A stretch of DNA of 42,094 nucleotides from an uncultured Bacteroidales bacterium (lineage in GTDB: Bacteria; Bacteroidota; Bacteroidia; Bacteroidales; Paludibacteraceae): the NCBI GenBank assembly GCA_902792535.1, contig CADAZU010000031.1:1-42094 (forward strand), given 5' to 3'. Under the pieces are notes generated by a model. It saw nothing but the letters and a program-made list of their open reading frames with translations, was not told the DNA's origin and did not search any database. A program made the translations under genes and the position numbers. Each line of letters starts with the position of its first letter. The stretch's first letter is position 1. Below, piece after piece: positions 1,953-41,451 of the stretch.

Positions 1953-1966
1953 TTGATTTATTTTTT

Positions 1967-13510: not shown

Positions 13511-13546
13511 ATTTTATCGTTTGTTTATATTTTTTTCTGCCACTGA

Positions 13547-26180: not shown

Positions 26181-26212
26181 TTTGCGTATGTGCGCGAAAA
26201 GCAGTAATTTTG
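26181..26212 (+). promoter_or_regulatory. promoter of the BspA-like gene
   Basis: A -33 TTTG (26181-26184), 20 bases, then -7 TAATTTTG (26205-26212). The flanks are closely related to the promoter at 15221. Confidence 0.85.
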
Positions 26213-26241
26213 CACCGGATTTGATAAAAAGAATAACGAAT

Positions 26242-28044
26242 ATGAAAAAGAGTTGCTTTTGGTTGATCTTGGGTCTGGCTCTGGTAGCCGGCAGGAGTTT
26301 TGCAACGGTCTATACCGGCAGTGTGGGACCGGAGTTGACGTACACGCTGGATTCGGGGACCGGACATCTGGTGATCGAAGGCCGCGGAGCCATGACCTCG
26401 GACGCGTTGAGTAATTATCCGACGAGGGAGTATGTGAAGACCGTCTCCTTCCCGGAAGGACTGACTTCGATCTGCGCGAACGCTTTTCACGGGTGCTATA
26501 ACCTGCAGTCGATCGTTCTGCCGGACAGCGTGGTCTCTATCGGTGCCTATGCCTTTCAGGAATGTACCCGAATGACCCGCGCTGATCTGGGCAAAGGAAT
26601 CAAGACGATTGACACCCAGGCGTTCATTTTTTGTACCGCTTTGCAGAAGGTCAGATGGTCAGATTGTCTCGAATCCATCGGGGATATGGCTTTCTATAAT
26701 TGCACCAACATCGGCGACACGGTCTTCTTCCCGAAGACCTTCAAGACGATGGGCTGGGGCGCTTTCGGGTCGGAGAACTACAATAGTGATTCCAAAGTGA
26801 TGGTATGGGAGGCTATTCACGCGGATGATTTCGTCCGGTATGAATCGGACGTGCCGGGAGAGAACCATTTTACCCATATCATCTTCGGCGACTCGGTGGA
26901 ATATATTCCTAAGATGTTGTGCAAGTTTATGTACAACGACACGATTATTCTACCTCAGACGGTAAAAACAATCGGCGAGAGTGCTTTTACGAATTGCTCC
27001 TGGTTGCAGAGTATCAACATTCCGGAAGGCGTAACGAGTATCGGCGCAAGTGCTTTTGCGGGTTGCAAGAAGCTGAAACAACTCATTCTGCCGTCCGGAC
27101 TGCAGGAGATTCCGGAGCAGTTATGCAACCTTTGCGGAGCCTTAGACTCCGTCAGACTGCCGGCAGGACTGACGATTATTCCCCAGAAAGCGTTTAACGG
27201 CTGCTCGTCGTTACGATCCATCAAAATCCCTAATTCGGTGACCAATATCGGCAATGATGCATTCGGAAATTGTCCGTTGGATACGGTGGTTTTTCCATCT
27301 TCGCTCAATGTGTTAGGTGATGGTGTGTTCAACCAACTGCTTCTGTCATCCAGCCCGAAACATCTGGTTCTGAACGACAAACTGGTAGCAACGGGCATGA
27401 GTACTTTTGCTAATTGGAGCGATCTGGAGACCATTGTGATCGGCAAGAACGTGTCTATTTTGGGTCAGGACTGTTTCTTGGGTGACTCGCTGGTGAAGGA
27501 CATCACCTGTTATGCCGCCCAGCCGCCGCTGATCTACGACGCTACGTTTGACGGCGTGCCGGACACGGCAGTTGTGCATGTGCTGTCCGGCAGCGTCGCG
27601 GCATACAGAGCTGCGCAACACTGGTCCCGTTTCCGCATTGTGGCTCTGGACGGCGAAGAAGTGGTACAGAAGAAAGTGACGGTGGAGGCGGCAGAGACGA
27701 CGGCGGATTTCACATGGCCGACAGACAGCGCGGCGCAGTCTTACCAGATCGATATTTACAAGGACGGAGCGGTCTTCTGCAAACTGACGCTGGGTAGCCG
27801 AGGGCAGTTGCTGGGGATCAATTTCTCTGCTCCGGGCAGAAAAAATAAACAAATGGTAAATGGACAAATGGTCAATGCTTCCACCCTTTCGTTCAAAGTG
27901 ACTGGACTGGATGAAGCCTCGCGCTATACGTACGTGCTCTCCGTATTAGATGCGCAAGGCACACCGATCCATGTCTATGTCGGCGATTTTGCAACCTTGG
28001 GTTATGACGGCGATCTGAAGATGCGCAGACACCGACCGGTATAG
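26242..28044 (+). CDS. BspA-like leucine-rich-repeat (LRR_5) surface protein, 3' end frameshifted
   Basis: A 600-residue reading frame with a signal peptide (MKKSCFWLILGLALVAGRSF, then A). About twelve LRR_5/BspA-type repeats span residues 45-440 (pattern LxSIxIPxxVxxIGxxAFxxCxxL), followed by a fibronectin-like domain (about 470-590: AETTADFTWP, FKVTGLDEASRYTYVLSV). The start at 26242 is chosen because it sits 30 bases after the promoter and begins the signal peptide. The annotated stop is premature: see the tail feature at 28016. BspA-like proteins are surface adhesins. No T9SS type A domain is seen in either frame, but the shifted tail resembles the short C-terminal module often closing such proteins. 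Confidence 0.8.
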   Translation: MKKSCFWLILGLALVAGRSFATVYTGSVGPELTYTLDSGTGHLVIEGRGAMTSDALSNYPTREYVKTVSFPEGLTSICANAFHGCYNLQSIVLPDSVVSIGAYAFQECTRMTRADLGKGIKTIDTQAFIFCTALQKVRWSDCLESIGDMAFYNCTNIGDTVFFPKTFKTMGWGAFGSENYNSDSKVMVWEAIHADDFVRYESDVPGENHFTHIIFGDSVEYIPKMLCKFMYNDTIILPQTVKTIGESAFTNCSWLQSINIPEGVTSIGASAFAGCKKLKQLILPSGLQEIPEQLCNLCGALDSVRLPAGLTIIPQKAFNGCSSLRSIKIPNSVTNIGNDAFGNCPLDTVVFPSSLNVLGDGVFNQLLLSSSPKHLVLNDKLVATGMSTFANWSDLETIVIGKNVSILGQDCFLGDSLVKDITCYAAQPPLIYDATFDGVPDTAVVHVLSGSVAAYRAAQHWSRFRIVALDGEEVVQKKVTVEAAETTADFTWPTDSAAQSYQIDIYKDGAVFCKLTLGSRGQLLGINFSAPGRKNKQMVNGQMVNASTLSFKVTGLDEASRYTYVLSVLDAQGTPIHVYVGDFATLGYDGDLKMRRHRPV

Positions 28045-28151
28045 AGACCGAAAGCGAGAGAAGTTCTTACTCCGTCATTCTCCGAAACGGACAGTTGTTG
28101 TTCGTGACCGAAGAAGGTGTATTTGATGTGCTGGGCAGACGAATTGAGTAG
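28016..28151 (+). pseudogene. out-of-frame C-terminal tail of the BspA-like protein
   Basis: If one base is restored near 28015-28016 (CTG AAG ATG to CTn GAA GAT GCG), the protein continues as EDAQTPTGIETESERSSYSV, then ILRNGQLLFVTEEGVFDVLG and RRIE, and stops at 28149. An ILRNGQLL...GVFDVLGRR pattern is the familiar last module of Bacteroidetes surface proteins, so this is very likely real sequence lost by a single-base deletion or a sequencing error. Confidence 0.8.
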
Positions 28152-28193
28152 AAAGTCACATACATCCGGCATAGAATATCGGGTTGCCGACGC

Positions 28194-28248
28194 GATCATC
28201 ACGGGATCATCTCCCGACCATCACGGGATCATCACGCGACCACCTTAG
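28194..28248. repeat. tandem 11-bp repeat, 5 units (GATCATCACGG type)
   Basis: Units on the plus strand: GATCATCACGG, GATCATCTCCC, GACCATCACGG, GATCATCACGC and GACCACCTTAG. Related units occur at 31532. Confidence 0.85.
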
Positions 28249-28308
28249 GACGACAATACCCCCACAATAGGAGAACGACGGCTCAAATCATAAATAACCA
28301 CGAGTTAC

Positions 28309-28363
28309 CCCTTACTTGCCTCTTATTTGAGTCTTATTTTACCCTTACTTGTCCCTTACTTAA
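28309..28363. repeat. tandem 11-bp repeat, 5 units (CCCTTACTTGC type)
   Basis: Units: CCCTTACTTGC, CTCTTATTTGA, GTCTTATTTTA, CCCTTACTTGT and CCCTTACTTAA. It is preceded by a CATAAATAACCACGAGTTA block that also precedes the array at 35027 (29 of 32 bases alike over 28289-28320 and 35007-35038). Confidence 0.85.
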
Positions 28364-28419
28364 AAATACCAAGTGAAAAAAGGAGCAGGCTTGCGTAAAG
28401 CAAAAAGGAGCAAGTGAAA

Positions 28420-28441
28420 TTAGCAGTCGTTCAGCAGTCAT
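28420..28441. repeat. two 11-bp units (TTAGCAGTCGT type)
   Basis: TTAGCAGTCGT followed by TCAGCAGTCAT. A copy of the unit, TTAGCAGTCAT, is at 31515, in both places followed by TCTCG. Confidence 0.7.
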
Positions 28442-28503
28442 TCTCGTTACCTGTAGGACTGCCTTGGCAGTCTGAAAAACCGGAACGATAACCGTACCCT
28501 TGG

Positions 28504-28857
28504 TTAAGAAAAGGGAATGCAGGCGGGGAACCTAAGCCGACCGAGAGAACAGACCATCGTGTACGTAACCGTTGCATCTGATATTTCGTCATTGATATGC
28601 GTAATGCTGCTTCTCCCCGTCAGTTTATACACCCTGTCTCCGTTGGCATCATAGCCATAGAAGCCGGCGTTCGTGTTGTCCACTACCATTCTAAGACGGT
28701 TCTCATCGTCCCAGTCATGGAAACGGACAAAATCCATTTTGCAGTTCATCAGTTGAGATAAATTACCATTACCATCCCAGAATAGTTGAGTACGTATCTC
28801 ACTTTCTTGGTCAAAGATCACTCGCGGCTGATGGGTCATGTATTTTAAGTATTGCAT
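28504..28857 (-). pseudogene. RHS-repeat fragment
   Basis: A 117-residue frame whose centre is a clear RHS/YD repeat: LFWDGNGNLSQ, WDDENRLRMVVDN, GFYGYDANGDRVYKLTG. An intact RHS protein would continue into the HSDHLG and core region; here the match ends at about residue 100 and the last 17 residues are unrelated. The 5' end is also cut: it begins inside the overlap with the stop of the gene at 28845 (13 bases). It is therefore debris of a large RHS gene lying behind an immunity-like gene, probably not a functional protein. Confidence 0.75.
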
Positions 28858-29441
28858 TCTTGCGCTAAAAACTTGGCGTATTCTTCTCCGTCCATCTTCT
28901 GCGTAATACGAGTACCTTCATACTCAACAAACAAGCCATTATGGGATGCCAATTGATCTAAATCGGTGTTAAAAACAGCCTGCTCTCCCTGCAAGAAATA
29001 GAAACGAGGACTGTTTACATAAACATAATAATCGTACCCAAAATGAATGTATGTCTTAGACTTTTTATGATACAAAACACCATATATATTTTCTCGGAGG
29101 ATTAATGGAATTACATATTGTATTTCGTCCAAAGACAAAGACATGTTATTATCAATTTTCTCATACCATTCTCTTAGTTTTCCATTTCTATCGTAAGTTG
29201 CACGGACAGGGAATTTTAAATCGCTAAATTGAATAATTTTAACTTTATGGGCATGTACATACTTAAATAATTTGACAAAGAAATTAATATAAGACTGCTC
29301 GGTTTTTTTGTATTCTTTATATGTGAATATTTTACCTTGGTATACACGACCAATATCAGACATGGAAGTCCATGAGTTGCTCCATCTATAATTTTTCTCT
29401 TTCAATATAGGAAATGTATTTATGGTCCAATTATCATTCAT
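28845..29441 (-). CDS. hypothetical protein, likely orphan immunity protein
   Basis: A 198-residue protein without signal peptide or membrane segment, rich in Lys, Tyr, Asn and Ile and visibly more AT-rich than the housekeeping genes. I recognise no family. Its position, 37 bases behind an RHS core fragment and in the same direction, is the standard place of a polymorphic-toxin immunity gene; a cytoplasmic protein would fit a toxin acting in the cytoplasm. The toxin tip itself is missing (the RHS fragment ends 24 residues after the core motif), so it would be an orphan immunity gene. A truncated toxin or an unrelated cargo gene are alternatives. Confidence 0.5.
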   Translation of the reverse strand: MNDNWTINTFPILKEKNYRWSNSWTSMSDIGRVYQGKIFTYKEYKKTEQSYINFFVKLFKYVHAHKVKIIQFSDLKFPVRATYDRNGKLREWYEKIDNNMSLSLDEIQYVIPLILRENIYGVLYHKKSKTYIHFGYDYYVYVNSPRFYFLQGEQAVFNTDLDQLASHNGLFVEYEGTRITQKMDGEEYAKFLAQECNT

Positions 29442-29478
29442 TATTGTAAAATTTTAAAATTCTATGGGAAGATTTAAA

Positions 29479-29814
29479 TTAGTCTCCAATTCTCTGAAGA
29501 TTTTCGTCATACGTTCCGTCTCTAGTCTTATTTGTCCCCGCTAATGTGACATCTTTGCCATCAGGATCAACGAATTTTACTGGATTCCACCCACAATAAG
29601 CGTAAGGAGATATATTCGGGTACTTATCGGCTAACGGATCAACGGATAGCCACGTGCCAGCTTCCGACCACAAGTACCTCGCTCCAAACGCATAGTAGCC
29701 TGTTTCCCAGTCTCTTTCTTTGCCTGTGAACTTATACCGTTCATCGTATCTTGCCATCTGTTGCTTGCTGGTTCGCCAGCAGTTGCCTGTACGGCAGTAA
29801 AAATCAAAGATCAC
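29479..29814 (-). pseudogene. RHS core C-terminal fragment without toxin tip
   Basis: The frame contains the RHS-associated core (RYKFTGKERDWETGYYAFGA, SVDPLADKYPNISPYAYCGW, NPVKFVDPDG) followed by only 24 residues. The usual upstream core sequence LPYRQLLANQQATDG is present at 29747-29797 but in another frame, so at least one frameshift separates it from the core. No start of a complete RHS gene exists: the sequence is cut 33 bases after the stop of the gene at 29848. Both the filament part and the toxin are lost. Confidence 0.75.
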
Positions 29815-29847
29815 TAAATTCCGCTGCAGAGATGCAAAAGCGATGAA

Positions 29848-31368
29848 CTATGTTCGAACTTTTCTATATTTCTGATTAGGAGCGTTAGGCCGATCGGGTT
29901 CAGTCATTTCCAATACACCAATGTCTATCAATGGTTGGATGTACTTTCTTCGTGACCTTGATTGATTGTAAACTCCTATTCTATTCATTATTTCTTGTGC
30001 CGTTCTCGGAACGGAGCAGAAGTTCACAATGTCCTTTTGTTGCTGTGTCAGCCGAACTTTAGGTTGGTGCTCTACTTGGTGCTCTACTTGGTGCTCTACT
30101 TGGTGCTCGGTTTGGTTTGCTACTTGGTTATTTTCGTTGGGCTCTCGTTGAATGGTAGTAACAAATTCTCGGATGGTTTCGTTATTCTCAAATTGTATGT
30201 TTGGCGTGTATAGCAGTGCGCGTGTGATTCCACTACCGGCACCGGTGTAAGGCAACAGATTGATACCATGATTGAATAGCAGTTTATTTCTCGGAACAGA
30301 TACTCCCTGTTTGATACTATCCAGTGTGACTCCTTCCGGTAACATGCCGGGACTGTGTATTTCAATACGATTGTCAAAAATGAATACCCGGAGCGGGGCT
30401 TCTATGACATACGAGCGATGCAACAAAGAGTTCACTACCAATTCAGAAAGACTTGTAGCAGACACCTCTAATTCTCCAGGACTATTAAACTCAACCTGCA
30501 TCTGCTTTTGGCGCAGGTTTCGAGTCAAGAAAGACATGATGTATTTGTAGAGGTGGACTATGTTTCCGTCTGCGTCACTTCCACTTTTGTCCCTAAACTC
30601 CGTCCCGCCGATGCTGTTTCCCACAAAGCTGATACATCGCACGGTAAATGCTGGTAGCCAGCGTTGCGGATTTTTTCCCATCAGCATCAATGCCGCCAGA
30701 GTCAGTCTGCCATCCGGAAGAATTAGACCATTGTTCCGCAAGATACCTTCTGGCGTTTGGCTGAGTAGCCCTGCGAGTTCGTTGAGAGGCTGTTGTTGGA
30801 GTTGGATAAAAGATAATTCTTGCCGTTCAAAATCATTCCTAAAACGATTCTGCAAGTAGTTTTTGACGGTATTTTCGTCCAAGTCTCCGAAACTTGTGCC
30901 ATCTATCGGCAGGCTGTCGGGATGAATCTGTCCATTCTCCATGAGCATAGACACGATTTCCGCGCTATCGAACACTCTGCGCTTGTCTGAACCTTGTTTA
31001 AGCCAGATAACGCCTTTATTATCACGATAGGGTTTGTTTTTACCTTCCTTGATGATTGCGACAATGACCTTTCCGCTGTCAACGGGTACATTTTCGATTT
31101 CAAGTAGGATTTGAGGAACTACGCTTTCTGAAGCCAAACTACCTAACAAATTGGTAGTCTCTTGGAGTTCGGAAAAAGAAAGTGGATTGATAGCACCCGT
31201 TTTGTCGTTGATACCGATTATTATCATTCCCCCATGGGCATTACTCAATGCCGCCATCTCACATGCGACGTCGTACTTGTTGTCGCGTGTGACACGTTCC
31301 TTGAATTGAACCGTGGTTTGCTCTCCATTATCTCTAATGCGGATAATATCTTCTTGGGTCAGACTCAT
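29848..31368 (-). CDS. AlbA_2 (Schlafen-like) / divergent ATPase transcriptional regulator
   Basis: A 506-residue protein from the ATG at 31368, 30 bases downstream of the predicted transcription start. Residues about 1-135 match the AlbA_2 domain (ESxxxQFKE-type TTVQFKERVTRDN, ALSNAHGGMIIIGINDKTG, KQGSDKRR). A helical middle part and a HATPase_c_4-like domain follow (about 270-410: LSELVVNSLLHRSY, VFIFDNRIEIHSPGMLP, GAGSGITRALLY). After a linker of four EHQ(V/P) repeats comes a winged-helix domain (about 445-500: TQQQKDIVNFC, TAQEIMNRIG). Such proteins are DNA-binding regulators often found in variable or defence regions. It has its own promoter and stands directly before RHS debris, in parallel to the abiE pair further right. 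Confidence 0.8.
   Translation of the reverse strand: MSLTQEDIIRIRDNGEQTTVQFKERVTRDNKYDVACEMAALSNAHGGMIIIGINDKTGAINPLSFSELQETTNLLGSLASESVVPQILLEIENVPVDSGKVIVAIIKEGKNKPYRDNKGVIWLKQGSDKRRVFDSAEIVSMLMENGQIHPDSLPIDGTSFGDLDENTVKNYLQNRFRNDFERQELSFIQLQQQPLNELAGLLSQTPEGILRNNGLILPDGRLTLAALMLMGKNPQRWLPAFTVRCISFVGNSIGGTEFRDKSGSDADGNIVHLYKYIMSFLTRNLRQKQMQVEFNSPGELEVSATSLSELVVNSLLHRSYVIEAPLRVFIFDNRIEIHSPGMLPEGVTLDSIKQGVSVPRNKLLFNHGINLLPYTGAGSGITRALLYTPNIQFENNETIREFVTTIQREPNENNQVANQTEHQVEHQVEHQVEHQPKVRLTQQQKDIVNFCSVPRTAQEIMNRIGVYNQSRSRRKYIQPLIDIGVLEMTEPDRPNAPNQKYRKVRT
30064..30111. repeat. in-frame 12-bp minisatellite, 4 units, in the AlbA_2 gene
   Basis: TTGGTGCTCTAC three times and a diverged fourth unit, coding EHQV repeats between the ATPase-like and winged-helix domains. 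Units could be gained or lost without breaking the frame, changing linker length. Confidence 0.85.
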
Positions 31369-31404
31369 AGGTATTTTATCGTGTGCCGTGTACCAAAAAC
31401 GCTG

Positions 31405-31435
31405 CAAATTTACTGCTTTTTTCTGAAATACACAA
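31405..31435 (-). promoter_or_regulatory. promoter of the AlbA_2 regulator gene
   Basis: On the minus strand -33 TTG (31433-31435), 20 bases, -7 TAAATTTG (31405-31412). Start expected near 31398, leader about 30 bases. Confidence 0.85.
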
Positions 31436-31514
31436 GGGAGATGGACATTTTTTAATCATTTTCACTCAGCAAACAGACATTCTCCATATTGGATTGCATC
31501 TGCTTTTCTCTCGT

Positions 31515-31564
31515 TTAGCAGTCATTCTCGCGACCATCTCATGACCATCTCGCGACCCTCCTGT
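31515..31564. repeat. 11-bp repeats: one TTAGCAGTCAT unit and three GACCATCTCGC-type units
   Basis: TTAGCAGTCAT (31515-31525), a 6-base spacer, then GACCATCTCAT, GACCATCTCGC and GACCCTCCTGT (31532-31564). Both unit types also occur in the 28152-28503 region. Confidence 0.75.
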
Positions 31565-31597
31565 ACGTCCTAATACGGTGCTTTAACTCCGAATTGC

Positions 31598-31630
31598 CTA
31601 TTACTTACCCCTTACTTGCCTCTTACTCGC
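31598..31630. repeat. tandem 11-bp repeat, 3 units (CCCTTACTTGC type)
   Basis: CTATTACTTAC, CCCTTACTTGC and CTCTTACTCGC, followed by CGCCGG. The same three-unit form and GCCGCC flank occur at 35027. Confidence 0.85.
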
Positions 31631-31710
31631 CGCCGGGGATGCGGTTATAGCGTTCATCCTAATCCGTAGTAGGCGAAGCCAAGGTGATCACTATGGGTAT
31701 AATAGATTTC
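31623..31710 (-). pseudogene. RHS core remnant
   Basis: Minus strand reads EIYYTHSDHLG (the hallmark HSDHLG of RHS proteins) from 31710, then runs into a stop at 31654. In another frame GATGAACGCTATAAC gives DERYN, the block before KFTGKE. It ends in the 11-bp array. A small decayed piece of an RHS gene. Confidence 0.65.
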
Positions 31711-31837
31711 GTATTCCTCTCAGTTCACTCTATAGTTGTTCAGAATTGGTTTTAAGAGTAAATCCTGCTTGGAAAGGATCTACTCAATTCGACTGCAAAG
31801 ATAATACTTTTTTGTGTGCAGCCTAAATCTAACTTTA

Positions 31838-32512
31838 TTAATGACGCGAATCATACCATCCAATTAGATAATTATTCTTTGCCCATAGTATAGCGCAAAG
31901 TCTCCACGCAGATTGTTTCTTATTGCGCCCTAATTCGTATACAGAAATTGGTTTTTCCTCTTCTTTGTATATGACATTCCCTATTTGTCGAAGTTCATAA
32001 TCTTCTTCAGTATCATTTACAATCGGTTCACTCCTTAATTGCAAATCAAAAACCTTCACTTCCTTTGGCGATGCATGCCAAATAATATCCTTACTATGTA
32101 TATCCGTAGTTGTAAATATCCAAACCTTCCACACTTGTTCAATTGTATCTTGTTGCTGGTTATATTTTAACCAATGATATTCGAATACATTTCCTGCACA
32201 ACATGGTGGTTCTAATATACAAAATGGGGATTCCAATCGGTTTGAGTGATATATACACTCTCCAACTCTCTCTATACATTTACCGGAGCGTAGATATACA
32301 AATGTAAAAGGCGATTCTGTTCCCAACTCCATACTGCTACGTGTGACGATAGAATCTATGACGCCATTATTTAGTCTGAAACACTTTGATTCTGGCTCGC
32401 ATACTAATGGAGAAGTCAGAATTTTATAGTTTAGATATAAATCTCTCTGACCATAGCAACTTTCAAAGGCAGAAAGAACCAATAACATTAATAATATTTT
32501 AATAGTTCGCAT
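31838..32512 (-). CDS. secreted protein, likely immunity to the NlpC/P60-type toxin
   Basis: A 224-residue protein with an N-terminal signal sequence (MRTIKILLMLLVLSAFESCY, then GQ); the Cys could be lipidated but the lipobox is poor. The rest is beta-rich with several Cys, and no family is recognised. Its start overlaps the end of the RHS/NlpC gene by 14 bases, the classical toxin-immunity arrangement. A wall hydrolase acts in the periplasm, so an exported immunity protein is what one would expect. It is AT-rich like the other island genes. The immunity role is inferred from position and export only. Confidence 0.55.
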   Translation of the reverse strand: MRTIKILLMLLVLSAFESCYGQRDLYLNYKILTSPLVCEPESKCFRLNNGVIDSIVTRSSMELGTESPFTFVYLRSGKCIERVGECIYHSNRLESPFCILEPPCCAGNVFEYHWLKYNQQQDTIEQVWKVWIFTTTDIHSKDIIWHASPKEVKVFDLQLRSEPIVNDTEEDYELRQIGNVIYKEEEKPISVYELGRNKKQSAWRLCAILWAKNNYLIGWYDSRH

Positions 32513-33281
32513 TTTGATCGTCTTTAGATGGTTTAACTATAATTTCTTGTAATTTTGCGGTAGATGAATCTTCAAAGACATCTGGGGTTTCATTCACTGG
32601 TCTATAAAAGAATGCGTTTTTACCTCTATAGTAGTTTAAAGAATAATTCTCACGGCGTGTAGAACTAACTATTGTTCCGTCATTCTTTTCGTATCTAGTA
32701 GCATGAAGCACCGTAACCGTATTGTCTTTTTCATTGTAACCTTCTATGATTCCGGTATGACCGGCCCATAAAACAATGTCTCCTGCTTGAGGGATGTCAC
32801 TTTTTATAAACTTCGTTTCATCGCTCATCATATTAGCCAACATATCTCTTGTACTATGACTTTCAATTGTTGATGTAATACCATCGCCAGCCAAAACTCT
32901 GCAAACAAATTCAGAACAATCCATAGTAGCCAAAGCCTCTGGACTTGTAGCTGTCCTTAAATAATAGCCTTTGTCTTGATTGTATGGAATCTTCTGCTCT
33001 GCCAACTCTCGCGCTAAAATAACACGATCTTTAGGCCCTCTTCCATCCGGATCAACGTACTTAATCGGATTCCATGCAGCGTATGCATAAGGAGAGATAT
33101 TCGGGTACTTATCTGCCAGCGGATCCACCTTGGTCCAGTGGTACAACAGCGGCATATAGTACCTTGCTCCGAAATAGTCATACCCAGACTCCGCATCCCG
33201 TTCCTTGCTGGTGAACTTGTACCGCTCGTTATATGCTGAGCATGAGTAGGAAAAGTAATATGGAAGGATAGAAAAACGCAT
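32499..33281 (-). CDS. truncated RHS core with NlpC/P60-like peptidase tip (toxin)
   Basis: From the ATG at 33281 the protein has 260 residues. A hydrophobic leader-like stretch (MRFSILPYYFSYSCSA) runs directly into the RHS core (YNERYKFTSKERDAESGYDY, ARYY, VDPLADKYPNISPYAYAAWN, IKYVDPDG). The tip then shows an NlpC/P60 cysteine peptidase: DCSEFVCRVL with Cys122, AGDIVLWAGHTGII with His175, and a third polar residue possibly at His193. Such domains cut peptidoglycan peptides. The N-terminal RHS shell is missing, replaced 15 bases upstream by the abiEii stop, so delivery would not be by a normal RHS cage. It could be a silent tip cassette, or be exported by the leader. Confidence 0.7.
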   Translation of the reverse strand: MRFSILPYYFSYSCSAYNERYKFTSKERDAESGYDYFGARYYMPLLYHWTKVDPLADKYPNISPYAYAAWNPIKYVDPDGRGPKDRVILARELAEQKIPYNQDKGYYLRTATSPEALATMDCSEFVCRVLAGDGITSTIESHSTRDMLANMMSDETKFIKSDIPQAGDIVLWAGHTGIIEGYNEKDNTVTVLHATRYEKNDGTIVSSTRRENYSLNYYRGKNAFFYRPVNETPDVFEDSSTAKLQEIIVKPSKDDQNANY

Positions 33282-33295
33282 GTATAAAAAGAAGA

Positions 33296-34306
33296 CTATT
33301 CTAATGAGTGAAAACGACACTCCAACTCTTTGATACGCGCTATCAATGTAGTGAACGGTAGTTTTTCGCCATATATCATGGTCTCGCACATCTGACGGTA
33401 ATCTTCTTCCCAACCTGCTATGAATTTGTCTGGGGGACAGAGTACAATGCTCTTGCGAAAATCCGCGGAATAATCAATATTCTGCATCGAAGTGAATATA
33501 GATCGATGATGTTGCACGCTTTGCCACAAGTCATTGTCTTCCATAGCTTTCTTGGCAAAATCCAAGTCCATCATCCGCTCCAGATCATACAAATGGCGTG
33601 AACGGCGTTTGGCAACAATCGTGTCGCGCTCAATGGAGAATAACTCATGCAGCAGACATGCTTTCTCTACAAAAGTCTTCGCTGGCGCAGCCGTCACAAT
33701 TTCGGGATTTACGAGCGAGGTGTTTATTGTAGGAGAACAGCTCTCTATCATGCTTGTTATATGACAAGCGATAGTGGGTTCCATGAGGGAACGTGCACCG
33801 ACCTCAAGCACAACTTCGTTTTTCAAGTAACTATATCGGTCCGCTAACAATAACGGATATTTGACAAAGATGCGTCTTGGCTCCGGGTAGGTGGAGTCTC
33901 CTTCTCCATCCGGTTCTACTTCAAGCGCAAGTGTTTGCGCCAGTCCGTATTTCTCTAATCCCTGTTGAAGAGCGGGGGCTAACACATCCTTTACATAAAG
34001 AGACGAGCGTTTACGCAAGTTCTTCAGCTGTTTTTTAGTCAAGTCTCCGCTTAATCCGTATTTAGCAGGGTCGATGGCAATATCTATATCCTCGGAAAAG
34101 CGTTCAATCAAATTGCCGATTTTAGACAAGGATGTGCCGCCCTTGAAAAGGATGTTGGCATCCAAATCGAGGTCGAACAAGATTTGAAGAATGGTTGTCA
34201 CCCACATATCCTTTTCTATTGCGGCAGCTGGTAGGTGGACATTCTCTTCAGCGTTACGCAGTACCAAACGCTTTTGTTCATCTGTTAATGTATGAAAATT
34301 ATTCAT
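33296..34306 (-). CDS. abiEii: AbiEii-type nucleotidyltransferase toxin
   Basis: A 336-residue protein of the AbiEii/AbiGii family. The nucleotidyltransferase motif GGTSLSK (56-62) and acidic pair SEDIDIAI (71-78) are intact, and later conserved Asp/Lys/Arg-containing stretches (EVGAR, FVEKACLLHELF, RRSRHLYDLERM) are present. AbiEii toxins of type IV toxin-antitoxin systems transfer nucleotides, in some members to tRNA, and give phage abortive infection. The gene overlaps its antitoxin by 8 bases and is followed after 15 bases by a truncated RHS gene. Confidence 0.88.
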   Translation of the reverse strand: MNNFHTLTDEQKRLVLRNAEENVHLPAAAIEKDMWVTTILQILFDLDLDANILFKGGTSLSKIGNLIERFSEDIDIAIDPAKYGLSGDLTKKQLKNLRKRSSLYVKDVLAPALQQGLEKYGLAQTLALEVEPDGEGDSTYPEPRRIFVKYPLLLADRYSYLKNEVVLEVGARSLMEPTIACHITSMIESCSPTINTSLVNPEIVTAAPAKTFVEKACLLHELFSIERDTIVAKRRSRHLYDLERMMDLDFAKKAMEDNDLWQSVQHHRSIFTSMQNIDYSADFRKSIVLCPPDKFIAGWEEDYRQMCETMIYGEKLPFTTLIARIKELECRFHSLE

Positions 34307-34901
34307 ATAGCTCTGTTATCTGTTTTTTTACCCATGTGGGCATTAGTTTCATATCCATTTCAGATATGCGTGGTTGCTGATTAAGCAGTCGCTTCAAGGT
34401 CATAAGTTGCTCTTGCGTCAGATTGTCTTTGCCAATCTCTTTGAGAGCGATGGAAACCAACTGTGCAAATGAACTCTCAAAAGCAAAAGTCTTGGGGGCA
34501 GCATGCTTGAAAACAATACTCCTGCCGTTTCGGATTTCCACTTTCCTTCCCTCGCCATTAGTCACATATACGGCATTCATAGGTACTTGCGTGCTTAATC
34601 CTAATTTGTTGATGGCATAGGCACCGGCAGGGGCGATAAGCGTTCTGTCACGATTGGCAAGACAGGTAGCGATTTCATCGAAAGTGGGATATATAACTCC
34701 TAATCCGAGTTCCGTTTCTATCTTTGGATAACAATACACTCCTCTTGTCACCCGGATTATATGTCCGTTTTCAGTAAGCCTTTCAATGGCTTTTTGAACG
34801 GCGGCAGCAGAACCATAGTGGGCGAAACGGGCAGGAGTGAACGCGACACCCCTTCCGCTCTTTTTTAATGATGTTAATATCTTATCCTCAATAGATTGCA
34901 T
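34299..34901 (-). CDS. abiEi: AbiEi-type antitoxin (DUF6088 family)
   Basis: A 200-residue protein with an N-terminal winged helix (VAFTPARFAHYGSAAAVQKA, LTENGHIIRVTRGVYCYP) and the C-terminal domain of the DUF6088/AbiEi family (RTLIAPAGAYAINKLGLSTQ). The antitoxin blocks AbiEii and represses its own promoter by binding repeats there. It starts 25 bases from the predicted -7 box, consistent with autoregulation. Confidence 0.85.
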   Translation of the reverse strand: MQSIEDKILTSLKKSGRGVAFTPARFAHYGSAAAVQKAIERLTENGHIIRVTRGVYCYPKIETELGLGVIYPTFDEIATCLANRDRTLIAPAGAYAINKLGLSTQVPMNAVYVTNGEGRKVEIRNGRSIVFKHAAPKTFAFESSFAQLVSIALKEIGKDNLTQEQLMTLKRLLNQQPRISEMDMKLMPTWVKKQITELYE

Positions 34902-34925
34902 TTACTTTTTGTTTGAAATTTGTCG

Positions 34926-34957
34926 CAAATTTACTGTAAAATTTCGACATACGCAAA
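34926..34957 (-). promoter_or_regulatory. promoter of the abiE operon
   Basis: Minus strand -33 TTTG (34954-34957), 20 bases, -7 TAAATTTG (34926-34933). The region also contains AAATTT-rich near-palindromes that might serve as AbiEi operators, but no long inverted repeat is obvious. Confidence 0.85.
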
Positions 34958-35026
34958 TGTTCTGACAAAAAAATTCAATTTAACATTCTTTTTTTTACAT
35001 TTTTAGCATAAATGATCACGAGTTGC

Positions 35027-35059
35027 CCCTTACTTGCCCCTTGCTTGCCTCTTACTTGC
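35027..35059. repeat. tandem 11-bp repeat, 3 units (CCCTTACTTGC type)
   Basis: CCCTTACTTGC, CCCTTGCTTGC and CTCTTACTTGC, followed by GCCGCC. The last unit supplies the stop codon of the gene at 35052. Preceded by CATAAATGATCACGAGTTG, shared with the array at 28309. Confidence 0.85.
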
Positions 35060-35501
35060 CGCCGTCCGTAAAATATAAGTAATGCCAGAAAGTATTATCC
35101 GATTTATCAAAGTCCTCTAAATAATAGCAGCTCATAGAATATTGTTCTCCGAGTTCTTTTAGAAAAACATTGTCTGCAAAGAAATCCCATTCAAAATTCT
35201 TCATTAAAAAGATTTCCGGCGGAGTGTCTATCGTGCAAAATAATTGCCTGTTTAATGCTTTTGGATAAGGACGTGCGCTATGAGTTGTATTGAGATAAAA
35301 AACTAACAAAACGTGTATATTACCCATTTTTGAACATTCAGTAACGGCTTGACTATAACATCTCCACGCATGATCTATCCAATTATTCTTAGGACAATCT
35401 ATTTCAATAAGTTCGTCGATATGATAACTGTCTTTTTCTAATGAGCCACGAGAAAACTCATTAACCCATTTTGCGATTCTATTGTTCAACATTCCATCCA
35501 T
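35052..35501 (-). CDS. hypothetical protein, likely orphan immunity protein
   Basis: A 149-residue acidic protein without signal peptide, rich in Trp, Tyr, Asp and Asn (IDELIEIDCPKNNWIDHAWR, EWDFFADN, TFWHYLYFTDG). No family recognised. Start at 35501 or, three codons later, at 35492; both overlap the end of the toxin-tail remnant in other frames, as immunity genes commonly do. Being cytoplasmic, it would fit a toxin with a cytoplasmic target such as a nuclease. Its stop lies inside an 11-bp array. The toxin upstream is almost entirely deleted, so it is an orphan. Confidence 0.5.
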   Translation of the reverse strand: MDGMLNNRIAKWVNEFSRGSLEKDSYHIDELIEIDCPKNNWIDHAWRCYSQAVTECSKMGNIHVLLVFYLNTTHSARPYPKALNRQLFCTIDTPPEIFLMKNFEWDFFADNVFLKELGEQYSMSCYYLEDFDKSDNTFWHYLYFTDGGK

Positions 35502-35641
35502 TTTGTTTTAGGTATTGTTTTTGTTCGTTCGTTAATTTCCCGTTTCCATGCAACTTGCTCGGAGAGATTTTCTGCATAAGATGAGGCTAAAGCCATTGAC
35601 AGAATCAAGCCCAATGATAAGTTAGCGATAATGTTTTTCAT
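35479..35641 (-). pseudogene. signal peptide joined out of frame to the last residues of a toxin
   Basis: From the ATG at 35641 the frame gives a good signal peptide, MKNIIANLSLGLILSMALAS then SYA, and ends after 51 codons in meaningless sequence (stop 35486). In the +1 frame from 35577 the DNA reads MQKISPSKLHGNGKLTNEQK, then QYLKQNGWNVEQ and a stop at 35479, which looks like the genuine C-terminus of a nuclease-type toxin tip. So a signal-peptide leader has been fused to the tail of a toxin with loss of frame and of the toxin body. The stop overlaps the start of the immunity-like gene at 35501. Confidence 0.65.
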
Positions 35642-35671: not shown

Positions 35672-36460
35672 CTACAAATCATCAATATAGTTAGTAAACA
35701 AAGACCATTCTTGTGCTGTCTGGAAGAGATGTTTGCTTCCTTTTGGGATATGTACAGGAATATCATTTTTCACTCCCTCAAATACCGGTAGCGAGTTAAT
35801 ATCTCCGGTGAGTACGGGTGGTTTGGGAGAATATACATATATTTCTTTTAGTCCTTTACATCCTCCAAAAGCAAAATATCCAATAGAATCTACGCTTCGC
35901 GGAAGAATAACGCATCTAAGTCGTGTACACCCTTCAAATGCGCCATCTTCTATAGTTACAACATGTTGGGGTATCTCAATACTCCTAAGACTCCTACATC
36001 CTTCAAATGCTGAGGATCCTATTCTTTGCAAACCATCAGGTAACTTTATTGATCGCAAGGATTTACACGAACGGAAAGCCCTTTCATATATATGACTAAT
36101 TTCGTTTGGGAGTTCTATATCTTGCAGTGAGATGCATGAAGAGAATGCTTCGCTTATAATGAATTTTAGTTTGCGAGGAAGGCGAACTTCTTTCAAATAT
36201 TTGCATCCCCTGAAGGCATCAGTTATATCGGTTACATAATATACTTCTTTATTAAGATAGATACTATCTGGGATATATACTTTCCCTGAATATAATTTAA
36301 GCCGTTTTTTATACCCGTCAGGTGGGACTACCAATGCGTTACCCTCATGGACTTGATATATGATGTCCTGAATCTCTATCTTTGGTGAAACTTGAGCATA
36401 CAATGTTCCAATGCAAAGCACAAAAAAGGATAATACTGCATTTTTATAATCTCTTTTCAT
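35672..36460 (-). CDS. secreted BspA-like leucine-rich-repeat protein, possible immunity protein
   Basis: A 262-residue protein with a signal peptide (about 1-22, ending LYAQ). Six LRR_5 repeats of 23 residues lie between about 80 and 215 (pattern LxSIxLPxxLxxIGxxAFxGCxxL), capped by a C-terminal module (IYVYSPKPPVLTG, VHIPKGSKHLFQTAQEWSLF) typical of BspA proteins. It is much shorter than surface adhesins of this family. Its ATG overlaps the stop of the clan-CD-like toxin gene by 4 bases (ATGA), the place of the immunity gene in the other cassettes here. An immunity role for an LRR protein is inferred only from that position. Confidence 0.65.
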   Translation of the reverse strand: MKRDYKNAVLSFFVLCIGTLYAQVSPKIEIQDIIYQVHEGNALVVPPDGYKKRLKLYSGKVYIPDSIYLNKEVYYVTDITDAFRGCKYLKEVRLPRKLKFIISEAFSSCISLQDIELPNEISHIYERAFRSCKSLRSIKLPDGLQRIGSSAFEGCRSLRSIEIPQHVVTIEDGAFEGCTRLRCVILPRSVDSIGYFAFGGCKGLKEIYVYSPKPPVLTGDINSLPVFEGVKNDIPVHIPKGSKHLFQTAQEWSLFTNYIDDL

Positions 36461-38268
36461 TTGTCGATATTTTTATATTGTTGTTCACATTGTTTTAAAA
36501 ATTGTTCTAATCCTTCGCCTTTCAATTTACTTTGTACAAACCTTGTCATGGCGCCTTCTTCTCCACTAATTGTCATTATCTGTTTACCTTTGTAAAAAAC
36601 ATTCCAATTGCCACCATCTTTAACATATTCATTTCCCTTTTCATTTATAGCGACCGGAGCTGTGGCTGATATTACTACAGAGCCGGATACTTCTTTTATC
36701 CCTGATAATTGGCGAGCAATAGAATTTTTCCCATTTCCGGCATAGCAGGAATAAAGTATGAAAACAGAAGAATGGCTATTTTGGGCTGAAAGATATGGAC
36801 TACGTTCAAATATTGCATACAATTTGTCAGGGCTATTAATAAAAGCAAACTTGTCATATATACCTGTTCCTTCGCGGTTCCCGTGTGCAAATAGTTCAAA
36901 AACATTGTACCAATCAAGAGCACCTATTGATTTTCCTCTTATAGCCATCCCCCTTTCCAAATGACGGGTTGTTGTTAACATCTCATTTTTGGTAGTTTGA
37001 GATAATGATTTGTTTTTCTTAATTTGCATTTCAGAAGCAAGCCCGCCGACAATCCACTCCCTTCCATCCGGGTCGACATATTTCACCGGATTCCACCCGC
37101 AATACGCATAAGGAGATATGTTTGGATATTTGTCTGCTAAAGGATCTACCGATAGCCATTTTCTTATATTATCAGTATGGTTGGTTCTATTATAATCCAA
37201 TGTTTCTTGGTATTTCTGCATGTATTCTTCTTGCGTATAAGCATAAAAGCCCATTTCTTCGTATGCCTTAATTTGTTGCTGTATATAATCATACTCACGT
37301 CCAAATACGGGGTCATTTCGCAACTCGGCAATCGAACGGAAACCTTTGTTCCACGCCTTCTTCTTCATCTGATATTCCAGATCTCCTATTCTTCGGGAGT
37401 GCAGGTTATCCGCGTAATGGTATTGTAGCCCCAATGTATAGCATTTTCGAACAAAATCATTGGAGTAAAAGCCCGTCTTCCGCTCATAGACACATAATAA
37501 ATCGAAGAGGCATTGTACAACCGTTTCTTTGTTGGTGAGATTCGTCATATATAGCCCGCTACGGATGGCATTTTCATTCACATGAAAACTCTCCATTATA
37601 AAGGAGGAACGGGAATATGTACCGGTCGTTGTTTCGTAGTTCCACCATTTGCCTTCAGCATCCTGATGCCGTATATAGAGATGAAGCGGGGCTAAAGCAA
37701 TGTATGCCTTTGCGCCCACTTTGTCGGCGATGAGCTTATATAGATATGGCAGCGAGTGACATGTGCCCATACCGGTTTTTAGCAGATTGGTTACCATACC
37801 GCCGGTCAGCCCCACATCTTCTATCAGCGACATCTTGTCGTACTCAAAAGGATGATAATTATTAAGCGGGCATGCCTGTGTGTAAAAAAGATATATCGCG
37901 TAATTGAGCGCAACATCAGGTGTCGGAGCAGAAACAGCGGGAGAGAGAGCCATACGTTGGACACCGAAAGCGATGCGCTCTAACTCCGCAAGATAGGCGG
38001 AATGATTCAGTTGACCGTCATACATACAATTCTCCACCGCAAAAACAGCTTCCGCAAAGTCCAAAGGGCGCTTATCCGATAGCATATCCTCTATCATCTT
38101 ATATGCTTGCTCATAGCGATAATGTCCCTCATAGCGAGAGGTATCATTCTCATCCCATGCAAAATTAGCTATCGGGTTTTCCGATTGGAACACATACTGC
38201 GGCTTGGCATACACGTTAATGGATACCAGATACAATAGGGGCAAAAAATATGTATGGTAGTATTTCAT
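36457..38268 (-). CDS. signal peptide + transglutaminase-like domain + RHS mini-core + clan-CD-like peptidase tip
   Basis: A 603-residue protein from the ATG at 38268 (a TTG two codons earlier is less likely). After a signal peptide (about 1-21) comes an N-terminal domain of some 340 residues with a transglutaminase-like Cys-His-(Asn/Glu) arrangement: GTCHSLPYLYKLIADKVGAK (Cys170), ALAPLHLYIRH (His196), WWNYETT. Residues 366-402 are a bare RHS mini-core (DNIRKWLSVDPLADKYP to KYVDPDG). The C-terminal 200 residues carry FELFAHGN (His462) and, after a hydrophobic strand, VFILYSCYAG (Cys508), the His-Gly and Cys pattern of clan CD (caspase-like) peptidases. It starts 8 bases after the lipoprotein gene. 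Neither a cage nor a T9SS domain is present, so it would enter the periplasm by Sec. Confidence 0.65.
   Translation of the reverse strand: MKYYHTYFLPLLYLVSINVYAKPQYVFQSENPIANFAWDENDTSRYEGHYRYEQAYKMIEDMLSDKRPLDFAEAVFAVENCMYDGQLNHSAYLAELERIAFGVQRMALSPAVSAPTPDVALNYAIYLFYTQACPLNNYHPFEYDKMSLIEDVGLTGGMVTNLLKTGMGTCHSLPYLYKLIADKVGAKAYIALAPLHLYIRHQDAEGKWWNYETTTGTYSRSSFIMESFHVNENAIRSGLYMTNLTNKETVVQCLFDLLCVYERKTGFYSNDFVRKCYTLGLQYHYADNLHSRRIGDLEYQMKKKAWNKGFRSIAELRNDPVFGREYDYIQQQIKAYEEMGFYAYTQEEYMQKYQETLDYNRTNHTDNIRKWLSVDPLADKYPNISPYAYCGWNPVKYVDPDGREWIVGGLASEMQIKKNKSLSQTTKNEMLTTTRHLERGMAIRGKSIGALDWYNVFELFAHGNREGTGIYDKFAFINSPDKLYAIFERSPYLSAQNSHSSVFILYSCYAGNGKNSIARQLSGIKEVSGSVVISATAPVAINEKGNEYVKDGGNWNVFYKGKQIMTISGEEGAMTRFVQSKLKGEGLEQFLKQCEQQYKNIDK
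37063..37173. repeat. RHS mini-core segment, copy 1 (111 bp)
   Basis: Codes 37 residues from DNIRKWLSVDP to VDPDG. The same 37-codon block at 39307 differs at only a few residues, although sequence on both sides is unrelated in the two genes. It is probably a recombination joint. Confidence 0.8.
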
Positions 38269-38276
38269 TAACAAGA

Positions 38277-38729
38277 TTAATAGTGATAGTTACATATAAA
38301 TAATGTATTAGTTGTGGTATCTATTACCACGACTGTCTTCTCAAAAAAATCATTATGGAGTTGTAATGTATCTTGCATGATTATTTTGAAATAACCAGCA
38401 TCGCTATTACAACATTTCTCATATTCCTGCACTAAAGAATTATTAGATAGATAAGATGCGCTTTCTAATACTACGGCTTTCAAGGATGAATGTTCGGATA
38501 AAGAATGCCATCCGGTCCAATTTACTACACTATTAGCTAACACATATTTTTCAACAACATACCATTCTCCGATTGCGTTAGATTCATACCTTTTTGATGA
38601 GATGACGCTGACCTCACTGACACACAAAATGTCTAAGAGGTGTTTCTCATACTTATTCACGCATGAAAACATGCTGATAAGAAAGATGAATAATACTATA
38701 TGTATTTTATTTGACTTTTCCTTGTCCAT
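38277..38729 (-). CDS. small lipoprotein, likely immunity protein
   Basis: About 150 residues from the ATG at 38729; an ATG-like start 12 codons earlier lies deeper in the upstream gene and before the signal sequence. The signal is KIHIVLFIFLISMFSC with the Cys as likely lipidation site. The remainder (VSEVSVISSKRYESNAIGEW, LVQEYEKCCNSD, KTVVVIDTTTNTLF) matches no family I know. It overlaps the end of the toxin-tip gene at 38707 by 23 bases and is followed closely by the next toxin gene. An envelope-anchored immunity protein fits a toxin that carries its own signal peptide. Confidence 0.55.
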   Translation of the reverse strand: MDKEKSNKIHIVLFIFLISMFSCVNKYEKHLLDILCVSEVSVISSKRYESNAIGEWYVVEKYVLANSVVNWTGWHSLSEHSSLKAVVLESASYLSNNSLVQEYEKCCNSDAGYFKIIMQDTLQLHNDFFEKTVVVIDTTTNTLFICNYHY

Positions 38730-39519
38730 AATAATATATGTTAAATGGTGTTCCCTTTCCAGCAACCATCGAACCTATTTGAGTTGCAATATTTCTAAAC
38801 CCTCGCCCCCTTTGCATATCAAAATCATAAATGTCTAATAGCCCATTTTTATTGCCTATCCTCACCGTTCCTCCATTATCTATCAAAGTTACCTGAATAG
38901 TGCCATATACCAAACCTGTTTGGATATTAAGATTTTTAGGATCTAGGAAATTAACATGTTTAGAAGATCCAATGGCAGAAAAATCAGATTTCGAAAGAGG
39001 AGATAAATCAACTTTAGCAGCGTCAACGTACAACGGATTACCATTTCCATTTCGATACCAATTATTTGCCTCAGAAAGATTTAATTGCCCATCCCAGTCT
39101 GGTCTATTTGATAGTCCATTATAGTTTTCCTGCATAGAGTTTCTATTTTCTTTATTCAGAAATTCAACCCCCACATCAAATCCTTCAGCTACATCTTTTT
39201 CCATTCCTTGTGTAAATAACTTTGAATCCATAATAATCGGATTTCCTTGCAGTCCATTTTCGTCTGTACCAAGAAGATTTCCATCCAAATCATAGACCGG
39301 CCTCATTCCATCCGGATCGACATACTTCACCGGATTCCAGTTGCAATACGCGTAGGGGGTGATATTCGGATACTTGTCGGCTAAGGGATCCACAGACAGC
39401 CATTTGCGGATGTTATCTGTAATAGGCGGAGACACCTCCGGCGCAAACGAATCAAACGGCGTCTGTGCGTATGCATAGATACCGAGCAGCCAAAGGGTTA
39501 TTAATGCTATTCGTTTCAT
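38707..39519 (-). CDS. signal peptide + RHS mini-core + unidentified toxin tip
   Basis: A 270-residue protein. A signal peptide (MKRIALITLWLLGIYAYAQ) is joined by 15 residues to the RHS mini-core (35-71: DNIRKWLSVDPLADKYP, NPVKYVDPDG). The C-terminal 200 residues form a separate domain with LNLSEANNWYRNGNGNPLYV, then LSPLSKSDF, GLVYGTIQVTLIDNGGTVRI and IYDFDMQRGRGFRNIATQIG. I believe this tip recurs in Bacteroidetes RHS proteins but cannot name its activity. The whole shell-forming RHS region is absent. It lies 20 bases behind the DUF8202-like gene and overlaps the lipoprotein gene. Confidence 0.6.
   Translation of the reverse strand: MKRIALITLWLLGIYAYAQTPFDSFAPEVSPPITDNIRKWLSVDPLADKYPNITPYAYCNWNPVKYVDPDGMRPVYDLDGNLLGTDENGLQGNPIIMDSKLFTQGMEKDVAEGFDVGVEFLNKENRNSMQENYNGLSNRPDWDGQLNLSEANNWYRNGNGNPLYVDAAKVDLSPLSKSDFSAIGSSKHVNFLDPKNLNIQTGLVYGTIQVTLIDNGGTVRIGNKNGLLDIYDFDMQRGRGFRNIATQIGSMVAGKGTPFNIYYYGQGKVK
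39307..39417. repeat. RHS mini-core segment, copy 2 (111 bp)
   Basis: The counterpart of the segment at 37063; related but longer cores are at 29560-29740 and 33045-33225. Confidence 0.8.
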
Positions 39520-39539
39520 GGTGAGGAATTTTAAAGATG

Positions 39540-40853: not shown

Positions 40854-40868
40854 AGTATAGGGATGAGT

Positions 40869-41264: not shown

Positions 41265-41336
41265 TGTAATAGAATATTAAGTTTAACATTGGGCGCATAA
41301 ATCAATGCGCCGCCAAACCAGTTTGATTTGACGGCA

Positions 41337-41368
41337 CAAAATTACTGCTTTTGGGCGAAGTGACCAAA
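41337..41368 (-). promoter_or_regulatory. promoter of the toxin-island transcript
   Basis: Minus strand -33 TTTG (41365-41368), 20 bases, -7 TAATTTTG (41337-41344). Start expected near 41330, leader about 65 bases. Seven colinear genes and fragments (41264 to 35052) follow without another clear promoter. An AATGTGGGAATTT direct repeat (about 41372 and 41430) lies just upstream and could be a regulator site. Confidence 0.85.
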
Positions 41369-41451
41369 AATAAATGTGGGAATTTGCAAATGCAGAACAC
41401 ACACAGAATCAGCAAGTTGATACAAAATCAATGTGGGAATTTTTGGTCGGA

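What the first reader, a model, noticed from the sequence alone, without database searches (positions are those of the whole stretch)
28194..35059. Two parallel composite units: promoter, unrelated defence gene, RHS core debris, immunity-like gene, 11-bp arrays
Read on the minus strand, unit 1 runs: promoter 34957, abiEi-abiEii, truncated RHS core with NlpC/P60 tip, secreted immunity-like gene, RHS remnant, 11-bp arrays (31630-31515). Unit 2 repeats the order: promoter 31435, AlbA_2 regulator, RHS core without tip, immunity-like gene, RHS fragment, 11-bp arrays (28441-28194). The same three array families end both units, and a CCCTTACTTGC array also ends the cassette at 35052. Order, sequences and promoters are seen directly. 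That these are modules acquired or shuffled as units, with 11-bp arrays as borders, is inference. I know of no described system with this layout.
Basis: partly seen in the sequence, partly recalled or inferred. Interest (0 to 1): 0.8.

Follow-up and report, generated by a model that had tools for sequence, protein, structure and literature searches.

The report
Defence genes inside gutted RHS genes
In one genus of gut bacteria, long bacterial-warfare (RHS) genes have repeatedly lost their middle and now hold unrelated defence-like genes there, beside leftover immunity genes and short 11-base repeats, which suggests that old weapon genes serve as swap sites for defences.

Summary
The layout is real. 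Both units are remains of RHS polymorphic-toxin genes: almost the whole shell is gone, and a promoter-like sequence plus a defence-like gene lies between a 5' remnant and a C-terminal piece. Unit 1: stub, immunity-like gene, 11-mer array, abiEi-abiEii, core with weak CHAP-like tip, immunity-like gene. Unit 2: stub remnant, AlbA_2 gene, core whose Ntox21-like tip is mostly deleted, intact immunity gene. A related species (G071) has an intact 3049-aa RHS ORF at the orthologous place.

The arrangement recurs: I list ten distinct cargoes in ten species of one Paludibacteraceae genus. One stub junction precedes five cargoes; the same AlbA_2 segment (97.7% DNA identity) follows two different stubs. 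Seven of ten cargoes match PADLOC at E<=1e-10, against 2 of 19 control genes (small, not an unbiased sample).

So cargo exchange at RHS seams is well supported. The 11-bp arrays are only partly borders: period-11 arrays of many sequences are scattered through intergenic DNA of the genus; one element built of them abuts RHS shell sequence in 6 of 8 copies. Their function is unknown. Recombination, mobility, joint expression and protection are inferred.

The parts
38707..39519 (-). signal peptide (by eye) + RHS core + tip (orphan toxin module)
   Evidence: TIGR03696 core E 1.4e-6, below cut-off; 96.7% aa in G071
38277..38765 (-). likely immunity gene of the 38707 module
   Evidence: 99.4% aa in G071, same order; role inferred from position
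36457..38274 (-). signal peptide + unassigned head (transglutaminase-like by eye only) + RHS core + tip
   Evidence: TIGR03696 E 1.1e-6, below cut-off; no Pfam hit; 72% aa in G071
35553..35641 (-). 5' stub of an RHS gene (signal peptide); rest of the shell missing
   Evidence: 85% nt to RHS N-terminus over 57 bases, E 5e-12; reading frame; G071 has an intact RHS gene in this part of the locus
35052..35501 (-). immunity-like gene directly after the stub
   Evidence: no Pfam hit; 34.5% aa relative beside an RHS module in G054
35017..35063 (+). CCCTTACTTGC 11-bp array
   Evidence: 87% over 46 bases to block B
34926..34957 (-). promoter-like sequence before abiEi
   Evidence: sequence; no functional test
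34299..34901 (-). abiEi antitoxin (unit 1 cargo)
   Evidence: DUF6088 1.4e-46; PADLOC AbiEi 3.7e-59
33296..34306 (-). abiEii toxin (unit 1 cargo)
   Evidence: PF08843 4.4e-24; PADLOC AbiEii 7.2e-89
32499..33413 (-). ORF with RHS core (33039-33233) and CHAP/NlpC-like tip
   Evidence: TIGR03696 6.7e-15; CHAP 3.9e-5, NlpC/P60 0.0025, both below cut-off
31838..32512 (-). secreted immunity-like gene of unit 1
   Evidence: signal-like N-terminus by eye; no Pfam or PDB sequence hit
31644..31700 (-). RHS shell remnant before block B
   Evidence: tblastn to RHS shell, E 2.5e-5; frames
31443..31643 (-). block B: 11-mer element joined behind RHS shell sequence
   Evidence: 88.8% nt in G041 C14; 8 copies compared, 6 with RHS shell directly upstream
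31447..31500 (-). RHS N-terminal coding remnant (about codons 107-123) inside block B
   Evidence: 91% nt over stub query 257-355; alignment
31400..31440 (-). promoter-like sequence before AlbA_2
   Evidence: no functional test
29848..31407 (-). AlbA_2 / HATPase_c_4 protein (unit 2 cargo)
   Evidence: PF04326 8.7e-20; 99.6% aa in G071
29479..29814 (-). RHS pre-core and core with an internal deletion of the Ntox21-like tip
   Evidence: TIGR03696 2.3e-17; Ntox21 profile 53-71 of 71 here, E 1.2e-4, 7-71 in G041 C12, E 1.6e-27
28845..29441 (-). intact immunity gene (likely for the Ntox21-like toxin)
   Evidence: 100% aa beside the intact module in G041 C12; 99.4% nt; no Pfam or PDB sequence hit
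28504..28857 (-). RHS shell fragment (aligned to G071 RHS residues 2520-2609)
   Evidence: tblastn to G071 RHS, 49%
28178..28450 (-). block A: 11-mer arrays at the far end of unit 2
   Evidence: 28178-28267 is 83% nt to the end of the G071 RHS locus; its GACCATC part has four more strong copies in the own genome

Best explanation
Each unit is what is left of an RHS polymorphic-toxin gene (or orphan RHS module) whose shell, about 2,700 codons in the intact relative, has been lost, with a promoter and a defence-like gene in its place. The 5' remnant upstream, and the shell, pre-core or core piece downstream, exist in many copies and give shared homology. Homologous recombination at these RHS seams swaps the cargo (abiE, AlbA_2, YhcG, RhuM, AAA_14 ATPase and others) between loci and species. 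Immunity genes downstream are kept, even when the toxin tip is lost, and can be read from the cargo's promoter. A dispersed element made of 11-bp repeats became joined to RHS shell pieces and travels with the units, often closing them. Shown: genes, junctions, their recurrence, identity of segments between species, the tip deletion. Inferred: recombination as the means, joint transcription, protection against phages or rivals, any role of the arrays.
For: Orthologous locus with intact RHS in G071. RHS-derived 5' remnant before both window cargoes. One stub junction (RHS codon ~123) before five cargoes: AlbA_2, AlbA_2-like, 126-aa lipoprotein, RhuM, 224-aa AbiEi. A second stub junction (..ENPIANFA, read by eye) before AlbA_2 in G071 and YhcG in G118. 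Common 3' seam GTGATCTTTGATT after AlbA_2 (window, G071), YhcG (G118) and a YhcG-like gene (G173); the seam pattern hits 6 of 178 genomes, reversed control 0. G188: AAA_14 ATPase between RHS pieces. Cargo 7 of 10 with PADLOC E<=1e-10 against 2 of 19 control genes, p 0.002. A locus reached by the RHS core query alone (G015) seems to carry a Kiwa system behind an RHS piece and 11-bp arrays.
Against: No strain pair with and without a unit was seen; the loci are from draft assemblies, and the unit 1 junctions (stub to abiE to core) rest on this one contig. Nine of the ten listed cargoes outside unit 1 were reached by array, stub, seam or RHS queries, so the set is not an unbiased sample, and two pairs (YhcG, AbiE) share a family. 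In seven other RHS loci 47 chosen ORFs gave only two PADLOC hits (KwaA, KwaB). AbiEii and AlbA_2 homologues elsewhere mostly lack RHS in their flanks. G034 and G149 have the stub and AbiEi but I saw no RHS C-terminal piece behind it. The promoter part of the stub query is generic in the genus. Two control genes also match PADLOC. PDC labels are candidates only, and the G173 gene appears frameshifted (by eye).
Confidence: 0.6

Rival explanations
1. Ordinary decay: RHS loci are long tolerant pseudogene stretches into which defence genes landed by chance at different times; shared junctions come from a few old events copied with their surroundings.
For: Broken frames and tip deletion; cargo families are also found away from RHS.
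Against: The same stub junction before five cargoes and the same AlbA_2 after two stubs need repeated exchange at one seam, not independent landings.
Confidence: 0.25
2. The units are mobile: the 11-mer element is a MITE-like or transposon end that mobilises the segment between two copies.
For: In G173 element sequence lies on both sides of the cargo (upstream side 36 bases, 81%, E 1.9e-5 against four element sequences). Two fuller copies have imperfect inverted arms (no control). BrickBuilt is a MITE with tandem repeats in Porphyromonas gingivalis.
Against: Breakpoints of exchanged segments lie at RHS seams, not at the arrays; no such end arms in the window and G041 copies; transposases, target duplications and empty sites were not searched for.
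Confidence: 0.1
3. Assembly artefact: repeats in RHS cores and arrays joined unrelated pieces in the draft genome.
For: Draft, 84 contigs, 82.65% complete; several RHS cores and arrays on one contig.
Against: Main junctions of unit 2 and block B recur in other genomes G071, G041, G046.
Confidence: 0.05

Closest known systems
Orphan (displaced) Rhs/CDI toxin-immunity modules
   Same: Truncated core + tip + immunity pieces, RHS fragments, immunity kept without toxin (PMC3967940, PMC10539506: search listing only; the rest recalled)
   Different: Here a promoter with an unrelated defence-like gene replaces the shell between stub and C-terminal piece
Polymorphic toxin loci with cassettes and polyimmunity (PMC3482391, passages seen)
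   Same: RHS delivery gene, alternative cassettes; Ntox21 tip listed there
   Different: Cargo is TA or candidate anti-phage genes rather than toxin or immunity cassettes
BrickBuilt minisatellite MITE of Porphyromonas gingivalis (PMC4596501, abstract and section 7 part 1)
   Same: Dispersed intergenic element of tandem repeats in a Bacteroidales species (order recalled)
   Different: 23-nt unit and defined terminal repeats there; here 11-bp units of many sequences, ends uncertain
Defence islands / type IV TA AbiE
   Same: Cargo genes belong to such families
   Different: The site is a gutted toxin gene with recurring seams

Membership tests
Orphan RHS toxin-immunity module | RHS core fragment joined to a toxin tip | tested here: met
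   Four cores in the window; CHAP-like tip weak, unit 2 tip mostly deleted
Orphan RHS toxin-immunity module | Downstream immunity gene that protects against that toxin | not testable with these tools
   28845-29441 sits beside an intact Ntox21 module in G041 C12; no Imm family hit
Orphan RHS toxin-immunity module | A full-length RHS gene in the same genome as recipient | tested here: not met
   Own genome shows five core hits in ORFs of at most 610 aa, but it is incomplete; G071 has a full-length gene
Type IV TA system AbiE | Adjacent abiEi and abiEii of matching families | tested here: met
Type IV TA system AbiE | Toxin-antitoxin activity | not testable with these tools
   no assay
MITE (BrickBuilt type) | Dispersed copies | tested here: met
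MITE (BrickBuilt type) | Terminal inverted repeats | tested here: inconclusive
   Imperfect in G118 and G033 copies, not in window or G041 C14
MITE (BrickBuilt type) | Target-site duplication and empty sites | not tested
   no call

The most novel reading that the evidence does not exclude
In this genus gutted RHS genes act as a cassette-exchange platform for anti-phage and TA genes: stub junction on the left, shell or pre-core seam on the right, retained immunity genes co-expressed, and an 11-mer element as end cap, so that interbacterial weapon loci turn into combined defence units.
Probability: 0.35. Interest if true: 0.75.

Novelty: new variant of a known kind. Interest (0 to 1): 0.6.

Why it matters
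It would give a concrete route by which toxin loci become sites for gathering defence genes, with sequence seams that can be searched to find new defence candidates. The 11-bp, sequence-diverse arrays of the genus are a separate open puzzle that can now be studied in a defined clade.

Tried and rejected
Arrays as intrinsic terminators: 5 terminator-like sites in 28-36 kb against 5.5 in shuffles. Arrays tied to one gene orientation: none seen by eye in the table; not tested statistically. Arrays as stop codons in all frames: 22 of 36 arrays against 16.8 +- 2.2 after permuting unit positions, 14 of 500 permutations as high: weak. The shared promoter as a cassette mark: dropped, as it matches generically in the genus. 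Defence gene plus RHS as a fixed pair: rejected (33 of 40 listed matches examined). Block B always behind an RHS core start: I first read 7 of 8 by eye; tblastn supports RHS shell upstream in 6 of 8 (E up to 7e-4; best reversed control 0.06), and neither G041 copy. Immunity genes among PDB sequences: two tried, nothing at E<=1. Papers on this layout or on 11-bp arrays: none found with the terms; one search looked for BrickBuilt.
Full report
What is in the window. On the minus strand, from 41 kb to 28 kb, lies an RHS polymorphic-toxin locus with four RHS core pieces. Two genes (38707-39519 and 36457-38274) are core-tip proteins with signal-like N-termini. The two units of the finding follow. 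The CHAP or NlpC/P60 tip of unit 1 is weak (3.9e-5 and 0.0025, below the cut-offs).

The orthologous locus. The own assembly G000 has 2.37 Mb in 84 contigs and is 82.65% complete. In 61 genomes of the genus, 17 (own included) match the RHS core query. Window 37057-41369 is 92.4% identical to it. Beyond that, G071 has an intact RHS ORF of 3049 aa, a gene in the immunity position, and then the AlbA_2 gene. So the window's locus once held, or is the counterpart of, a full RHS gene.

The RHS shell is gone and cargo stands in its place. In unit 1 a signal-peptide stub of an RHS gene lies at 35553-35641 (85% to the RHS N-terminus; frame). It is followed by an immunity-like gene, an array, abiEi-abiEii and, about 60 bases on, the RHS core start. 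In unit 2 the array block contains a remnant of RHS codons about 107-123 (31447-31500), followed by AlbA_2 and the RHS pre-core and core. The Ntox21-like tip of unit 2 is internally deleted: the intact relative in G041 C12 covers profile positions 7-71 (E 1.6e-27), the window only 53-71 (E 1.2e-4, below cut-off), while the immunity gene is 100% identical in protein and its segment 99.4% in DNA.

Recurrence in other species. The RHS codon-123 stub is followed by AlbA_2 (window), an AlbA_2-like gene of 487 aa (G041 C14), a 126-aa lipoprotein and RhuM (both G046 C24), and a 224-aa AbiEi (G034; G149 has a near-identical ORF start that was not scanned). In the window, G041 and the RhuM copy only codons about 107-123 remain. 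A second stub, from the head of the 36457 type, precedes AlbA_2 in G071 and YhcG in G118. The stub query matched 59 of 178 genomes, but only nine places in six genomes (G000 twice, G046 twice, G149 twice, G034, G041, G071) lie in RHS coding sequence; the other places match only the generic promoter end. At most four candidates per genome were scored, so this is a lower bound.

Three-prime side. The seam GTGATCTTTGATT follows AlbA_2 in the window and G071, YhcG in G118 and a YhcG-like gene in G173. In G041 C12 it follows an immunity gene and in G188 it starts an orphan module, so it is a module start rather than a mark of cargo alone. G041's AlbA_2-like gene and G188's AAA_14/DUF4143 ATPase are followed by the same RHS shell stretch (LLFGYD..THQPR), and G046's RhuM by another shell piece. 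G033 has a 283-aa lipoprotein (by eye) before an RHS shell piece and the block. In G034 and G149 I saw no RHS piece behind the AbiEi gene.

Counting cargo. Ten distinct cargoes in ten genomes: abiE and AlbA_2 (G000; AlbA_2 also G071), AlbA_2-like (G041), lipoprotein and RhuM (G046), YhcG (G118), YhcG-like (G173, apparently frameshifted), AbiEi-224 (G034, G149), AAA_14 (G188), lipoprotein (G033). With PADLOC at E<=1e-10 seven of ten match; AlbA_2 (best 1.6e-9) and both lipoproteins do not. The AlbA_2-like match is to Argonaute-associated models, so its label is uncertain. Of 20 genes found behind genus-type promoters in unselected own sequence, 19 were scanned (one was lost at a stretch end) and two match. 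Fisher p 0.002. Cargo loci were mostly found through array, stub and seam queries, so this is not a rate.

A check on other RHS loci. From seven loci reached by the RHS core query (G050, G015, G061, G041 C12, G054 twice, own C50) I scanned 47 chosen ORFs, not all: two match, one KwaA and one KwaB. The scan does not say which; by length, membrane segments and adjacency they are most likely L135:9492-9956 and L135:9969-10883 in G015. There an ORF carrying RHS shell letters (11151-11831) ends in two 11-bp arrays (11014-11190) and the two genes follow: the same order of RHS piece, arrays, defence genes, though beside an intact RHS gene.

The arrays. In 352 kb of own sequence not chosen for arrays, runs of period 11 (18 of 22 matching) number 16, all intergenic by a simple gene caller; periods 10, 12 and 13 give 2, 3 and 1. 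Same-genus stretches (209 kb, nine species) give 8 with other unit sequences, and 0 at 10, 12 and 13. Ten genomes of other families of the order (371 kb) give 3, and 0 at 10 and 12. Period 7 is also common in the genus. So 11-bp arrays are a trait of the genus and not of RHS units. Block B, an element made of them, was compared in the eight copies that match at least query 100-189: six directly follow RHS shell sequence by tblastn (window, G046 three times, G118, G033), and the two G041 copies do not, one of them showing only a core-start-like string by eye. The block query matched 13 of 178 genomes at 21 places (at most four candidates scored per genome); I read the surroundings of 18, not of G173 C3, G075 C89 and G053 C94. 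Places that match only the CCCTTACTTGC array (G118 C43, G087, G075 C39) showed no RHS hit in the fetched stretch. In G173 element sequence lies on both sides of the cargo. Two fuller copies have imperfect inverted arms. Block A's array ends the locus in both window and G071.

How it works, most likely. Many copies of RHS stubs, shell pieces and cores offer homology; recombination there exchanges what lies between, and selection keeps defence genes and immunity genes while toxin tips and the shell are lost. In unit 1 a cell-wall-acting tip and a secreted immunity-like protein would fit together, and in unit 2 a nuclease-like tip (Ntox21 is listed as a tRNase in PMC3482391) and a protein without signal peptide; this is inference from family knowledge. 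Whether the cargo promoter also drives the immunity gene is likely from spacing but not shown.

Novelty. Orphan RHS modules, polymorphic toxin cassettes and orphan immunity genes are known (PMC3482391, passages seen; PMC3967940, PMC10539506, PMC12247911, PMC10470768, search listing only). Dispersed tandem-repeat elements are known in Porphyromonas (PMC4596501, abstract and part of section 7). I found no paper on defence cargo inside gutted RHS genes or on these 11-bp arrays with the searches, in an open-access library only. I rate it a new variant of a known kind.

Noticed in passing
window 1959-2026, 13544-13582 and many loci: Sequence-diverse tandem arrays of exactly 11 bp (also of 7 bp) are scattered through intergenic DNA of this genus; the other families of the order that I sampled have few.
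   Followed up: partly
L135 9492-11190 (G015): A likely Kiwa pair (KwaA, KwaB) follows an RHS piece and two 11-bp arrays, next to an intact RHS gene; which ORFs matched is inferred.
   Followed up: partly
window 30064-30108: Perfect 12-bp repeats (3.8 copies) inside the AlbA_2 gene, coding EHQV repeats: a possible in-frame variable repeat.
   Followed up: no
window 28044-28153: The BspA-type LRR gene 26182-28044 seems, by eye, to continue in another frame, so it may be frameshifted.
   Followed up: no
L217 (Prevotella sp. tf2-5): The only other AlbA_2 relative that the genome-contig scan returned (65%); its neighbourhood was not read.
   Followed up: no
L219 7381-8598, L227 4476-5732: AAA_14/DUF4143 ATPase genes stand near array elements, with no RHS hit in those stretches.
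   Followed up: no
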